Shown: positions 194 to 2,948 of the stretch, piece by piece
How the letters are laid out: the number at the start of each line of letters is the position of its first letter
Position numbering within the stretch: the first letter of the stretch is position 1
Assembly (NCBI GenBank): GCA_002702235.1
Contig: NZYO01000030.1
Span: 1 to 7,017, forward strand
Direction: 5' to 3'
DNA: 7,017 nucleotides
DNA from: Gammaproteobacteria bacterium
Lineage (GTDB): Bacteria; Pseudomonadota; Gammaproteobacteria; Poriferisulfidales; GCA-002705445
Notes under the pieces: generated by a model
What the model was told of the DNA's origin: nothing
Databases searched by the model: none
What the model saw: only the letters and a program-made list of their open reading frames with translations
Position numbers and translations under genes: made by a program

Positions 194-224
194 AAAATAC
201 CCCTCACTCGAAGAGTGAGGGGTA
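194..224 (-). terminator. Rho-independent terminator of the 168-aa minus-strand gene
   Basis: A perfect 12-bp stem (198-209 with 213-224, TACCCCTCACTC and its complement) closes on a 3-base loop. Read on the minus strand it is followed immediately by TTTTCTTG. It begins 9 bases after the stop codon of the gene at 740-234. GC-rich stem, tight loop and U-tract are the classic features of intrinsic termination. Confidence 0.88.
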
Positions 225-233
225 ATCTTGGTG

Positions 234-740
234 CTATGCACCAAGATACTTTTTCTTGAGTTCAGCTTTCTCTTTAGATGAAAGAGGCTGAGATGACTTT
301 GGTTTGGCATTCTCTTTGCCAATCCAATTAGGCTTGAATGCATAACCAAACATCTGCTCAAAGTCATCATTGTTAGCATTGAAGAACTGCTCGATAACGT
401 CACGGACAGCAACAAGATCATCAATCATAGCCTGAACGTCACGGACTCCACCTTGAAATCCATACTGCTCGATCAATTCCTGAGAGCCTGCTCCGTAGCT
501 ACCCTTAGCATCAGCAATAAAATCTGCCTCAACTGCTGCCTGCATATACTTATTACAAGCAGACAACTCAGCATCTACTTTGTTATATGCTCTATCAATG
601 TTACCCATATTAGATATAAAGATATATTTCTTCATACCATCTAATCTCTTCTGAGAGTATTGGGTAAGACTTTTAGCTGAAGTACCTGAAATGTGATTTG
701 TTAGAACTTCTGCGTAATTTATTGTGTTTTTACTTGTCAT
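234..740 (-). CDS. Hypothetical protein, 168 aa, divergent from the late operon
   Basis: I do not recognise the family. The frame is open further upstream to 812, but I chose the ATG at 740 because AAAGGAG lies just before it and the extra 24 residues look non-coding. The 168-residue product is probably soluble, with no signal peptide or membrane segment. Likely helices lie around residues 40-75 (MGNIDRAYNKVDAELSACNK and on) and 90-120 (GGVRDVQAMIDDLVAVRDVI), with a short flexible tail ending LSSKEKAELKKKYLGA. One cysteine is present. The gene is followed by a strong terminator and preceded by a stem-rich leader. It runs opposite to the packaging genes, and its GC content (about 48% counted at 421-540) is above that of the late genes. 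It could be an early or host-interaction gene; that is a guess from orientation only. Confidence 0.88.
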   Translation of the reverse strand: MTSKNTINYAEVLTNHISGTSAKSLTQYSQKRLDGMKKYIFISNMGNIDRAYNKVDAELSACNKYMQAAVEADFIADAKGSYGAGSQELIEQYGFQGGVRDVQAMIDDLVAVRDVIEQFFNANNDDFEQMFGYAFKPNWIGKENAKPKSSQPLSSKEKAELKKKYLGA

Positions 741-799
741 TTTCTTCTCCTTTTGGTTGTTAATTGACACTCTTGCTAAGCCATAAAAAGGACTAATAA

Positions 800-832
800 C
801 TAAGAGCGTCACGCCCTAGCGTGACTCATTAG
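800..832. other. Stem-loop in the leader of the minus-strand gene
   Basis: GTCACGC (808-814) pairs perfectly with GCGTGAC (819-825) around a 4-base loop. An outer CTAA/TTAG helix (800-803 with 829-832) and a two-pair middle helix extend it. No T-run follows on either strand, so it is not a simple terminator. On the minus strand it would lie in the 5' leader about 60 bases before the ATG at 740, where it could affect RNA stability or translation, or it could be an operator. Confidence 0.55.
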
Positions 833-834
833 AA

Positions 835-889
835 GCGTCAAAAAAATTAACGAGGGTTCCCTTTGGGATACGTTCATTTTTCTTGACGC
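835..889 (-). terminator. Long nested hairpin with A- and T-tracts, possible terminator
   Basis: Nested pairings run 835-841 with 883-889 (GCGTCAA/TTGACGC), 842-847 with 876-881, 849-852 with 871-874, and 858-861 with 865-868 (TCCC/GGGA, loop TTT). Read on the minus strand, the core stem is followed by AATTTTTTT (848 down to 840), which resembles an intrinsic terminator for anything transcribed leftwards from around 1077-1180. An A-tract on the other side makes it roughly symmetric. If minus-strand transcription starts farther right, this would be an attenuator ahead of the gene at 740. Confidence 0.55.
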
Positions 890-1077
890 AGTCCGTTATG
901 GCATAGCTTTAGAGTGGCATTAACAAGCGAAAGGAAAGAAATGCAAAAACACAGTAAATTCCAGAAGTGCCAAATAACATGAAGGACTACGGAAGCAAAA
1001 GTCTTGCCCAATACTCGGTACGGACACAACAACTCCACCAACTCCACCACCTCGCCTTTGTGATCCAAGCGTATCAT
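874..1077 (-). CDS. Doubtful small minus-strand ORF, 67 aa, one hydrophobic segment
   Basis: The frame would start with ATG at 1077 and stop at 874, right at the foot of the terminator-like hairpin. The product would have a repetitive start (GEVVELVELL, encoded by a 9-base tandem repeat) and one strongly hydrophobic stretch at about residues 28-52 (ASVVLHVIWHFWNLLCFCIS) that could span a membrane. The upstream GGAAGAA is about 11 bases from the ATG, a weak ribosome binding site. The same DNA folds into stems, so a structured RNA or chance frame is at least as likely. The ATG lies beside an outer arm of the inverted repeat, and the sequence crossing it resembles the opening of terS on the other strand. 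Confidence 0.25.
   Translation of the reverse strand: MIRLDHKGEVVELVELLCPYRVLGKTFASVVLHVIWHFWNLLCFCISFLSLVNATLKLCHNGLRQEK
1031..1048. repeat. 9-base tandem repeat, two copies
   Basis: AACTCCACC occurs twice back to back (1031-1039 and 1040-1048), followed by a further partial ACCACC. It forms most of the purine-poor loop of a stem made by GGACACAA (1022-1029) and TTGTGATCC (1058-1066, one bulged A). Confidence 0.7.
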
Positions 1078-1129
1078 CTAAGTGTTTCTTCCACTAACTA
1101 TCTGTTTTAACAAGAGAAAATAAATACCC

Positions 1130-1158
1130 TTGACAAGTTATTCTAGCACGTTCATAAA
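1130..1158 (+). promoter_or_regulatory. Sigma70-like promoter for the late operon
   Basis: A perfect -35 box TTGACA (1130-1135) is followed after exactly 17 bases by CATAAA (1153-1158), 4 of 6 to TATAAT. The start would fall at about 1165, within the G-rich stretch just before terS and inside the loop of the inverted repeat. A transcript from here would lack the left arms and so could not form the large hairpin. A phage-polymerase promoter ending in the run of Gs is the alternative. Confidence 0.55.
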
Positions 1159-1159
1159 A

Positions 1160-1174
1160 GGGGGGTAAGGGGGG
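1160..1174 (+). promoter_or_regulatory. G6-TAA-G6 run with the terS ribosome binding site
   Basis: GGGGGGTAAGGGGGG is very unusual in this AT-rich sequence. The second run, AGGGGGG, ends 5 bases before the TTG start codon of terS and can pair with the anti-Shine-Dalgarno only partly. The first run would lie at the expected transcription start. It supports the choice of the TTG at 1180. Confidence 0.5.
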
Positions 1175-1179
1175 TTCTC

Positions 1180-1551
1180 TTGTTAAAACAGATTAGACTA
1201 ACAAAGAAACAGAAACACTTAGTTGATACTATCGTAGCATCAGGGTGTAGTATAAAAGAGGCTGCTGCAAAGTCTGGTTATGCAGATGGTGAAAGTGGCA
1301 GAGTGACTGCTAGTAAGACTTTGCGACTGCCTCATGTTCAAGAGTATATGCAACAAATGGTAAGACAGAGTATTGGACTAAATGCTACGATTGCGTCTAG
1401 AAGAGTACTTGACTTAGCGCAAAGTGCTAAGTCTGAGTACGTACAGCTTGAGGCGTCTAAGGATATACTGGATCGTGCAGGGTACAAACCAGTAGAGAAA
1501 AGTATGACAATGTTGCAAGGCAACATCTCTGTCAACATAGACCTGACTTGA
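1180..1551 (+). CDS. terS: Terminase small subunit
   Basis: TerS binds the packaging site on concatemeric phage DNA and presents it to the large subunit. The 123-residue product has the expected N-terminal helix-turn-helix region: LTKKQKHLVDTIVASGCSIK (residues 7-26), then EAAAKSGYADGESGRVTASK and LRLPHVQEYM, the common pattern of small terminases. A second helical part carries LEASKDILDRAGYKPVEK, which I recall from marine phage terminases. The start is TTG at 1180: no ATG precedes residue 57, an in-frame TAG lies at 1144-1146, and a G-rich ribosome binding site sits just before it. It opens the plus-strand operon, with terL eight genes later. The start codon lies in an arm of the inverted repeat. 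Confidence 0.87.
   Translation: MLKQIRLTKKQKHLVDTIVASGCSIKEAAAKSGYADGESGRVTASKTLRLPHVQEYMQQMVRQSIGLNATIASRRVLDLAQSAKSEYVQLEASKDILDRAGYKPVEKSMTMLQGNISVNIDLT
1510..1526. other. Small perfect hairpin inside the end of terS
   Basis: ATGTTGC (1510-1516) and GCAACAT (1520-1526) form a 7-bp stem with an AAG loop inside the coding sequence, followed by no T-run. It is probably incidental, but could be a protein-binding site near the 3' end of the terminase gene. Confidence 0.35.
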
Positions 1552-1626: not shown

Positions 1627-1938
1627 ATGGCTAAGACACCTGCATGGACACGAAAAGAAGGCAAAAATCCTAAAGGTGGTCTAAATGCTAAGGGTCGTGC
1701 CTCATATAAAGGTGGCACTTTAAAACCTCCAGTAAAATCAGGTGATAATCCTAGACGTGCAAGTTTTCTTGCTCGAATGGGCAACATGAAAGGACCAGAA
1801 TATGATTCAAAAGGAAACCCTACTCGTTTACTATTATCGCTTCGTCAATGGGGTGCTAAGAGTAAAGCAGATGCTAGAGCAAAAGCTAGAGCTATTAGTA
1901 AACGAAATAAAGCAAAGAAGTCTAAGAAAAAAAATTAA
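1627..1938 (+). CDS. Small basic phage protein, 103 aa (WTRKEGKNPKGGLNAKGRAS family)
   Basis: The function is unknown. The 103-residue protein starts with a well-defined block, AWTRKEGKNPKGGLNAKGRA (residues 6-25), then LKPPVKSGDNPRRASFLARM, GPEYDSKGNPTRLLLSLRQW and a Lys/Arg/Ala-rich tail (SKADARAKARAISKRNKAKK). I recall this pattern as a conserved protein of unknown function in many marine phages (possibly annotated DUF6321; not checked). It has no membrane segment or signal. The ATG at 1627 follows AAAAAGG at a spacing of 7. It lies 75 bases after terS and begins the row of small basic genes. The many basic residues and Gly-rich start suggest nucleic-acid binding or a capsid-internal role, which is inference. 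Confidence 0.9.
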   Translation: MAKTPAWTRKEGKNPKGGLNAKGRASYKGGTLKPPVKSGDNPRRASFLARMGNMKGPEYDSKGNPTRLLLSLRQWGAKSKADARAKARAISKRNKAKKSKKKN

Positions 1939-1960
1939 TACATTAGAAAAGGAGAAAGCT

Positions 1961-2092
1961 ATGTATCATTCAATGAAGAAAAAGACTGCTACTAAGAAAA
2001 AGGCAAACGGAGGTCTTACCAAGAAACAGAAGACACTTCCTGCAAGTTTGCAGAAAAAAATTATGGCTTCTAAAAAGAAAAAAATGAAGTAA
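1961..2092 (+). CDS. Lysine-rich peptide, 43 aa
   Basis: Start at ATG 1961 with AAAAGGAG just upstream, the clearest ribosome binding site of the cluster; an open frame extends back to 1802 but overlaps the previous gene. The product MYHSMKKKTATKKKANGGLT, then KKQKTLPASLQKKIMASKKK and KMK, has 16 lysines in 43 residues and no acidic residue. The core LTKKQKTLPASLQKKI resembles a short conserved motif I remember from marine phage small proteins. Its charge would let it bind DNA or RNA, or an acidic partner. Its stop overlaps the next start by one base. Confidence 0.82.
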   Translation: MYHSMKKKTATKKKANGGLTKKQKTLPASLQKKIMASKKKKMK

Positions 2093-2265
2093 TGGCAAAG
2101 TCACGAGTCAATGAGGCAGGTAACTATACCAAGCCAACAATGAGAAAGGCTTTATTCCAAAGGATAAAAGCAGGAACTAAAGGTGGAAAAGCAGGTCAAT
2201 GGTCTGCAAGAAAAGCACAGATGTTGGCAAAACAATACAAAGCAAAAGGTGGAGGGTATAGATGA
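2092..2265 (+). CDS. Small basic protein, 57 aa (GQWSARKAQMLAKQYK family)
   Basis: The ATG at 2092 overlaps the previous stop (TAATG) and has no clear ribosome binding site of its own, so translation is probably coupled. The 57 residues begin MAKSRVNEAGNYTKPTMRKA and end with AGQWSARKAQMLAKQYKAKG and GGYR. There are 15 Lys/Arg and one Glu. The K-G-G-K-x-G-Q-W-S-A-R-K-A-Q motif followed by GGGY is one I recall from conserved phage proteins and from large algal virus proteins, with no known function. The coherent motif and the tight overlaps on both sides make it a convincing gene despite its size. Confidence 0.88.
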   Translation: MAKSRVNEAGNYTKPTMRKALFQRIKAGTKGGKAGQWSARKAQMLAKQYKAKGGGYR

Positions 2266-2417
2266 AGAAGGCACTTACTACTAGACAAAAGACTGCACTT
2301 AAACGTCATGCCAAACATCATACTGCAAAGCATATGTCTAGTATGAAAAAAGATATGATGGCAGGAATGTCGTTCACAGCCAGTCATAAGAAAGCTATGA
2401 AAAAAGTTGGAAAGTAA
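2262..2417 (+). CDS. Small His/Lys-rich protein, 51 aa
   Basis: The ATG at 2262 overlaps the preceding stop by four bases (ATGA) and follows GGAGGG at a spacing of about 7. The product begins MKKALTTRQKTALKRHAKHH, continues TAKHMSSMKKDMMAGMSFTA and ends SHKKAMKKVGK. It carries 13 Lys, 2 Arg and 5 His and a single acidic residue (Asp31). The pattern H-A-K-H-H-T-x-K-H-M followed by G-x-S-F-T-A-x-H-K-x-A-M is one I remember from small phage proteins. The function is unknown; the His-rich segment (residues 16-24) could bind a metal or nucleic acid. Its stop overlaps the next start by one base. Confidence 0.87.
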   Translation: MKKALTTRQKTALKRHAKHHTAKHMSSMKKDMMAGMSFTASHKKAMKKVGK

Positions 2418-2698
2418 TGGCTGATCCTAAAGTAGGTACTGGTAAGAAACCAAAGGGAACTGGTCGCAGACTTTACACAGATGAGAACCCTAAAGATACT
2501 GTATCTATAAAATTTGCTACACCTGCTGATGCTCGTGCAACTGTTCGTAAGGTTATGAAGATTAAAAAACCTTATGCTCGTAAGATACAGATACTAACTG
2601 TTGGAGAACAAAGAGCAAAGGTTATGAAAAAAAGAGCAGTTGTAAATATTTTTAAAAAAGGTAAAGATACTTTAAGGAAACAAAAGAATGTCACTTAG
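2417..2698 (+). CDS. Small basic protein, 93 aa (GRRLYTDENPKDTV family)
   Basis: The ATG at 2417 shares a base with the previous stop (TAATG) behind a weak GGAAAG. The 93-residue protein opens DPKVGTGKKPKGTGRRLYTD, then ENPKDTVSIKFATPADARAT and VRKVMKIKKPYARKIQILTV, with a basic tail (KKGKDTLRKQKN). I recall the GTGKKPKGSGRRLYTDENPKDTV block as conserved in marine phages and in some giant viruses, function unknown. The middle (residues 36-70) could fold as a small alpha/beta or helical unit; the termini look disordered. It overlaps the next gene by 11 bases. Confidence 0.9.
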   Translation: MADPKVGTGKKPKGTGRRLYTDENPKDTVSIKFATPADARATVRKVMKIKKPYARKIQILTVGEQRAKVMKKRAVVNIFKKGKDTLRKQKNVT

Positions 2699-2948
2699 TA
2701 AATCACAAAGGTCGCTTCGTGCTTGGACAAGACAGAAATGGAGAACCAAATCAGGTAAACCTAGTACACAAGGGAGTAAAGCAACTGGCGAACGTTATTT
2801 ACCTGAAGCGGCAATTAAGGCTCTTTCTTCCTCTGAATACGCCAAGACTTCGGCTGAAAAGCGTAAAGCAACTCGAAGAGGAAAACAAGTTTCTAAACAG
2901 CCAAAAGCGATTGCTCGAAAAACGAAGAAGTTTAGAAGTTTTAGCTAG
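2688..2948 (+). CDS. Small basic protein, 86 aa (KWRTKSGKPS family)
   Basis: Start at ATG 2688, inside the end of the previous gene, with AAGGAAA about 8 bases before. The 86 residues run SLSKSQRSLRAWTRQKWRTK, SGKPSTQGSKATGERYLPEA, AIKALSSSEYAKTSAEKRKA, then a very basic tail (TRRGKQVSKQPKAIARKTKK). The W-T-x-Q-K-W-R-T-x-S-G-K-P-S pattern and YLPEAAIKALSSSEYA are blocks I recall from marine phages, with similar sequence in large algal viruses. The function is unknown; the tryptophan/basic N-terminus and Lys/Arg tail suggest nucleic-acid contact. An overlapping frame at 2719-2958 lacks such features and is a shadow. Confidence 0.9.
   Translation: MSLSKSQRSLRAWTRQKWRTKSGKPSTQGSKATGERYLPEAAIKALSSSEYAKTSAEKRKATRRGKQVSKQPKAIARKTKKFRSFS

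What the first reader, a model, noticed from the sequence alone, without database searches (positions are those of the whole stretch)
1071..1229. Composite inverted repeat whose loop carries the promoter and whose right arm holds the terS start codon
The inner arms (1100-1118 and 1175-1193) match 19 of 19 and the outer arms (1071-1089 and 1211-1229) match 18 of 19. The right arms are coding, the left arms are not. A transcript reading in from the left could fold with the TTG start codon locked in a stem. A transcript starting at the promoter in the loop (TTGACA at 1130) lacks the left arms and would be translatable. The same logic is known in T4, where early read-through RNAs of late genes such as e (lysozyme) hide their start in a hairpin while late transcripts do not. 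That this applies here is inference. A terminase recognition site is the main rival explanation.
Basis: partly seen in the sequence, partly recalled or inferred. Interest (0 to 1): 0.75.

Follow-up and report, generated by a model that had tools for sequence, protein, structure and literature searches.

The report
Giant shape-conserved hairpins beside terS
Between an early gene and the packaging gene terS, this phage and many of its relatives carry long imperfect hairpin-forming repeats whose two arms change together while their letters turn over, and these likely fold read-through RNA so that start sites would be hidden or shielded until the right promoter is used.

Summary
The repeat is real: inner arms 19/19, outer arms 18/19, RNA folding z -6.2. 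In six relatives the arms covary (7 cells changed on both sides; score reached by 0/500 shuffles). The loop's TTGACA is kept in 16 of 16 aligned loci. Locking of the terS start in read-through RNA is predicted in 5 of 6 clusters with TerS at least 82% identical, but in only 1 of 37 others: the T4-like reading is partly supported, and lineage-specific. Letters turn over to background, yet each genome's arms match each other; in 8 of 14 Hodr-type genomes the terS and X coding sequences themselves match. RNA read toward terS is the favoured carrier, on modest evidence. DNA-level function and a self-copying palindrome remain open.

The parts
234..740 (-). gene X, divergent early-side gene, 168 aa, function unknown (DUF7209 only below cut-off); SD AGGAG, ATG at 740
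   Evidence: ORF; 11 database proteins at E 5e-42 or better, the first apparently its own; Pfam 16.4 bits against cut-off 27
655..839 (.). hairpin A, left arm: leader, ribosome-binding site, start codon and first 28 codons of X
841..1016 (.). hairpin A, right arm: mirror copy of the X 5' region without the X frame (ribosome-binding site and ATG visible)
808..825 (+). small perfect hairpin GTCACGC-CCTA-GCGTGAC inside hairpin A, replaced by other perfect hairpins in L005-L007 and L012
1071..1089 (.). hairpin B, outer left arm (noncoding)
1100..1118 (.). hairpin B, inner left arm (noncoding)
1130..1158 (+). promoter-like TTGACA-17-CATAAA in the loop of hairpin B
   Evidence: no mapped 5' end
1160..1174 (+). 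double G run GGGGGGTAAGGGGGG, next to the predicted transcript start
   Evidence: kept in 77 of 78 set-1 loci
1175..1193 (.). hairpin B, inner right arm, holds the TTG start of terS (1180-1182)
1211..1229 (.). hairpin B, outer right arm, coding (terS codons 11-17)
1180..1551 (+). terS, terminase small subunit, 123 aa

Best explanation
Upstream of terS lie two neighbouring imperfect inverted repeats whose arms change in step across related phages and which would, in RNA read rightward through them, likely fold so that the terS start codon is hidden and the stretch antisense to the start of gene X is masked, while RNA from the conserved promoter motif in the second repeat's loop is predicted to be free to make TerS. 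Shown: both repeats, covariation, genome-specific matching of arms, position over the start sites. Inferred: that rightward read-through RNA exists, that it folds as predicted, and that the effect is to stop stray RNA in the terS direction from making TerS or silencing X. The letter-turnover of hairpin A fits selection on the shape; why it is so long in many relatives is not explained by this model.
For: Hairpin B covaries and raises the predicted opening cost of the terS start region (beyond all shuffles in 5 of 6 clusters with TerS at least 82% identical). Hairpin A type: X start codon inside the left arm in 45 of 49 clusters, axis 75-174 nt upstream of it (L009 aside, where the caller took an internal ATG); in 22 of the 45 the arm ends 9-28 codons into X. 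Arms track each other: own matches beat every cross in 13 of 14 Hodr-type and 9 of 14 window-type genomes; 173 two-sided compensated changes against about 42 expected under independence in 9 of 19 comparisons; 27 of 123 consensus pairs with compensatory changes in six L030-type loci. Strand: + strand RNA is the more stable in 42 of 49 clusters, against 33 of 49 downstream controls; in 20 GC-richer clusters G.T exceeds A.C mismatches 2.3-fold beyond strand skew (95% 1.55-3.50; 2.18 without L062; the GC split was chosen).
Against: In 29 AT-richer clusters there is no G.T excess (0.86-fold, 0.69-1.06), so a strand-specific RNA is not seen there; the window's own hairpin A has 4 G.T and 4 A.C. Locking of terS is confined to the close clade. 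No + strand promoter motif stands out left of hairpin A (3 sites in 18.9 kb), and a terminator-like site facing right lies at 225-247. Hairpins of 1 kb or more that cover all of X are longer than masking a start site needs. Four distant comparisons show little excess of compensated changes (10 v 7.7, 17 v 12.2, 13 v 10.2, 46 v 35). 31 of 77 set-1 entries have no repeat at z above 5 within 900 nt upstream.
Confidence: 0.36

Rival explanations
1. The hairpins act as DNA: the palindrome extrudes as a cruciform or folds in single-stranded DNA during replication, recombination or packaging, and the shape is what the machinery recognises.
For: No RNA-type wobble bias in 29 AT-richer clusters, transition-type mismatches only 31% of all mismatches there, as expected if both strands pair; letters turn over freely; the site adjoins terS and the early/late divergence point; Hodr encodes RecE-like exonuclease, SSB and a RusA-like junction resolvase.
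Against: Hairpin A of the window has a predicted Y-shaped apex, not a small central palindrome, which disfavours extrusion; the arms are placed on X's start site (45 of 49); GC-richer clusters show a one-strand bias.
Confidence: 0.25
2. No function: a palindrome that maintains itself, because copying of short patches from one arm to the other (template switching, conversion) keeps restoring complementarity.
For: Compensated changes are clustered in the two longest comparisons (32 v 18.4 and 40 v 20.4 neighbouring); many small indels between matching blocks; arm length varies widely between relatives.
Against: Two conserved coding sequences match in 8 of 14 Hodr-type genomes; same place relative to X in 45 of 49 clusters; clustering not significant in the other 6 comparisons; in the long L009, L018, L053 and L062 hairpins matching runs are more even than random, where patch copying should leave long tracts, but this holds in only 4 of 19.
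Confidence: 0.2
3. Only the T4-type lock: hairpin B hides the terS start, and hairpin A hides the X start in leftward read-through RNA; nothing else is going on.
For: for terS; X start inside the arm in 45 of 49 clusters; T4 precedent.
Against: Hairpin A on X would need leftward RNA, but the strand signals that exist point to rightward RNA; hairpins are far longer than a start-site lock needs; terS lock in only 1 of 37 clusters outside the close clade.
Confidence: 0.1
4. Terminase recognition (pac or cos) site.
For: Next to terS, where such sites often lie (general knowledge); a double G run just upstream of terS is kept in 77 of 78 set-1 loci.
Against: A TerS-specific site should keep its letters while TerS is kept; here arms fall to background between loci with 83% identical TerS (window v L014). 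The G run, not the hairpin, would fit a site.
Confidence: 0.06

Closest known systems
T4 late-promoter translational locks (I-TevI, I-TevII, I-TevIII, segB; Aeh1 mobE; lysozyme e recalled and seen only as a cited title)
   Same: start region paired in longer transcripts, own promoter placed so that its RNA lacks the other arm (passages of PMC2988022)
   Different: those hairpins lie on one gene and are short (recalled); here there are two adjacent repeats, up to about 1.5 kb in relatives, one antisense to a divergent gene, with letter turnover
Plasmid-type antisense RNAs with bulged stems (CopA, RNAI; recalled, the search listed no direct paper)
   Same: interrupted stem-loop, antisense to a start region
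   Different: those are about 100 nt (recalled); here one arm is antisense and the other a mirror copy; no antisense transcript known
cabRNA of staphylococcal phages (PMC10686824, passages)
   Same: structured phage RNA from the terminase gene region, sequence not shared between phages
   Different: cabRNA comes from within terS or the terS-terL boundary; not an inverted repeat upstream of terS
Integron attC sites and poxvirus concatemer junctions (recalled)
   Same: imperfect palindromes conserved as shape with extrahelical bases
   Different: no integron or poxvirus-type machinery was sought; size and placement differ

Membership tests
T4-type promoter-between-arms translational lock | start codon or RBS paired with upstream sequence in longer RNA | tested here: met
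   predicted only: 23.8 v 4.4 kcal/mol in the window; beats all 20 shuffles in 5 of 6 close clusters, z 3.4-6.3
T4-type promoter-between-arms translational lock | own promoter between the arms | tested here: met
   TTGACA-17-CATAAA at 1130-1158; TTGACA kept in 16 of 16 loci; motif only
T4-type promoter-between-arms translational lock | longer transcript exists and is poorly translated | not testable with these tools
   no RNA data
T4-type promoter-between-arms translational lock | kept in relatives with the same gene | tested here: inconclusive
   5 of 6 close clusters, 1 of 37 others
Plasmid-type antisense RNA | discrete antisense transcript with its own promoter | tested here: inconclusive
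   motif scan found 3 + strand sites in 18.9 kb left of 49 hairpins
Plasmid-type antisense RNA | interrupted stem | tested here: met
   longest Watson-Crick run 8-20 bp in 28 hairpins; more even than random in only 4 of 19
pac/cos site | sequence conserved with its TerS | tested here: not met
   arms of window and L014 cross-match at 15-16 against own 59 and 66 although TerS is 83% identical
Known RNA family | match to an Rfam model | tested here: not met
   0 matches at gathering score in the window
Hairpin telomere / cruciform resolution site | near-perfect palindrome centre and a resolving enzyme | tested here: inconclusive
   predicted Y-shaped apex in the window; RusA-like gene in Hodr; protelomerase not sought

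The most novel reading that the evidence does not exclude
Phages kin to this one and to pelagiphage Hodr carry a selected giant hairpin, about 0.25-1.5 kb, at the early/late divergence point, preserved as a shape while its letters turn over completely, so that even the unrelated coding sequences of early gene X and terS are co-adapted to pair: a new class of nucleic-acid element that acts in RNA read toward terS.
Probability: 0.4. Interest if true: 0.9.

Novelty: categorically new. Interest (0 to 1): 0.76.

Why it matters
If the shape is selected, it is a long-range constraint linking the codons of two divergent genes, which Rfam does not cover, in phages related to one that grows on Pelagibacter. 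It would be a natural test bed for how cells treat kilobase imperfect hairpins, and it makes the choice between RNA-level and DNA-level function directly testable in the cultured phage Hodr.

Tried and rejected
Assembly artefact: rejected, because arms are imperfect and the same layout recurs in many metagenome contigs and in a cultured phage. Plain inverted duplication of X left to decay: rejected as the whole story, since own arms match better than cross arms and X and terS are different genes. A cap on perfect runs: a first simulation found runs too even in 16 of 19 hairpins, but it compared partial alignments with whole arms; repeated properly, only 4 of 19 are significant (L009, L018, L053, L062), and a simpler test gave 4 of 28. 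The cap is therefore dropped as general evidence, and the odds of the best reading, of the novel case and of the self-copying rival were moved a little for that reason. The strand test first looked strongly positive (57 G.T v 2 A.C in L062), but much of that was strand skew; corrected, with no effect left in AT-rich clusters. X's function: AlphaFold model of low confidence (pLDDT 62), no PDB match at E 0.001. Promoter of X near the axis: none found by motif (0 sites within 100 nt of 49 axes). Papers: none held with pelagiphage + inverted repeat, with EXVC031P or EXVC032P, or with phage + imperfect palindrome + terminase small subunit; the listings held nothing relevant. My first X-start caller picked the wrong gene in many loci (30 of 49) and was replaced (45 of 49); in L009 it still picks an internal ATG. 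In one search the start of own RNA was guessed from the motif and is too far upstream for L003, L004, L008 and L010.

Full report
Where it is. The window is a whole 7017-base contig of an unnamed 1.1 Mb assembly, and a 98% identical TerS lies on a second contig of it. terS at 1180 is followed by small basic ORFs, terL, and a head-to-tail connector (portal) gene. The nearest isolate by TerL is Pelagibacter phage EXVC031P Hodr, 64% identical. In Hodr, X starts the gene series that carries anti-restriction, replication-initiation, RecE-like, SSB and RusA-like genes; terS starts the opposite series with the structural genes. That these are early and late operons is inference.

The reported repeat. 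It is there as described and is not chance: RNA z -6.18, score 40 against at most 30 in 100 shuffles. In six loci with the same outline (window, L002, L005, L006, L007, L012), 96.5% of cells pair, 4 pairs have two-sided changes, 7 cells in all, and the covariation score 0.105 is reached by 0 of 500 shuffles (mean 0.036); sliding the partner destroys it. Left out of that count: L001 and L083 (nearly identical to the window), L003, L004, L008-L011 and L013, whose outer left arms carry insertions or other sequence and whose inner arms show one to three mismatches or, in L009, a changed register (read). TTGACA in the loop is kept in 16 of 16 aligned loci. One compensation (L005 type) changes the third codon of terS.

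Does it lock terS? Predicted opening cost of the start region is 23.8 kcal/mol in read-through RNA and 4.4 in RNA from the loop promoter. With the upstream 200 nt shuffled, the real value beats all 20 shuffles in 6 of 43 clusters: L001, L003, L009, L014, L018 and L099. Six clusters have TerS at least 82% identical to the window's; five of them are in that list and L015 beats 19 of 20. L014 has lost the inner left arm (score 9, below its shuffles); its upstream holds a C-rich stretch complementary to the G-run ribosome-binding region. So in this clade the lock is kept by two different pairings; in the other 37 clusters only L099 shows it. Passages of PMC2988022 describe the T4 precedent.

The second, larger repeat. 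655-839 pairs with 841-1016 (133 of 165 aligned pairs Watson-Crick; z -14). The left arm is the leader, start and first 28 codons of X; the right arm lacks the X frame. Of 77 set-1 entries with at least 600 nt upstream (6 others too short; near-duplicates included), 64 exceed all 20 dinucleotide shuffles and 46 have z above 5; 31 do not; 1 of 59 downstream control stretches does. In the Hodr set I gave 76 of 80 loci; 9 were too short, and the best repeat scores 55 or more in 44 of the other 67 (my count). Over both sets and three MAG loci, 87 hairpins (score 55 or more, span over 240 nt) fall into 49 sequence clusters. Spans checked run from 246 to 1468 nt. In Hodr the repeat is unique: score 244, next best 52.

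Shape without letters. Between window and L014 left and right arms cross-match at 15-16, while each matches itself at 59 and 66; in the Hodr type own arms beat every cross in 13 of 14 genomes (mean 110 against 35), in the window type in 9 of 14, where close relatives interfere. In 9 of 19 comparisons, named in the script before the run, 173 pairs changed on both sides and stayed Watson-Crick against about 42 expected under independence; four distant comparisons show little excess. Six L030-type loci give 27 of 123 consensus pairs with compensatory changes.

Two genes co-adapted. In Hodr-type genomes the palindrome runs into terS. terS nt 1-264 matches its own genome's X coding sequence at 38-48 in 8 of 14 genomes (codon-shuffled X: at most 19-24); own is the best or within 3 of the best X. 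In the other 6 the coding parts alone do not exceed the null (13-19). Relatives of both proteins exist, so simple copying of one into the other does not explain it.

Placement and interruptions. X's start codon lies inside the left arm in 45 of 49 clusters (not in L028, L047, L068, L107); in 22 of the 45 the arm ends 9-28 codons into X, in others it runs further, up to the whole gene. The stems are interrupted: longest Watson-Crick run 8-20 bp in 28 hairpins. Runs are significantly more even than simulated decay in only 4 of 19 hairpins, the long L009, L018, L053 and L062 (which replaces the biased). Indels between arms are frequent.

RNA or DNA? After correcting for strand skew, G.T exceeds A.C 2.3-fold (1.55-3.50) on the + strand in 20 GC-richer clusters and not at all (0.86, 0.69-1.06) in 29 AT-richer ones; the split was made. 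+ strand RNA is the more stable in 42 of 49 clusters, against 33 of 49 downstream controls. This modestly favours RNA read toward terS. The AT-rich result leaves a DNA role open. Compensated changes are clustered in the two longest comparisons and not significantly in six others, which leaves patch copying open.

Verdict. The reported hairpin is ordinary in logic, T4-like, and probably a lineage-specific lock. The neighbouring element, of which it is a small companion, is not ordinary: a giant, imperfect, shape-conserved hairpin over the start of X. I found no description of it in the held papers, and no Rfam family matches the window. The proposed mechanism, disarming of rightward read-through RNA, is the best single account but is mostly inference.

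Noticed in passing
window 1160-1174: Double run of five or more G's (GGGGGGTAAGGGGGG) just upstream of terS, kept in 77 of 78 set-1 loci with varied spacing, also where another ribosome-binding site is nearer the start; present in only 7 of 73 Hodr-set loci. Could be a transcript-start, packaging or quadruplex element.
   Followed up: partly
window 808-825: Perfect 7-bp hairpin GTCACGC-CCTA-GCGTGAC in hairpin A; L005-L007 and L012 have different perfect hairpins at the same place. Could be an operator.
   Followed up: no
window 939-1110: The right arm of hairpin A keeps a ribosome-binding site and ATG in the X position but a broken frame; a + strand ORF (ATG 979 to 1110) reads KSLAQYS like X's KSLTQYS.
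   Followed up: no
window 1627-2948: String of small, very basic ORFs between terS and terL; the first is DUF6321 (E 2e-21).
   Followed up: no
window 198-247: Two terminator-like hairpins back to back at the 3' end of X, one facing each way.
   Followed up: no
L083 (G000:C24) and window (G000:C29): Two nearly identical copies of this phage region in one 1.1 Mb assembly, perhaps two strains of a phage binned with a host.
   Followed up: no
L167, L168: Hairpins of 608 and 665 pairs (539 and 560 Watson-Crick) on contigs binned as a Euryarchaeota and a Rhodobiaceae MAG; the bin names may not be the host.
   Followed up: no
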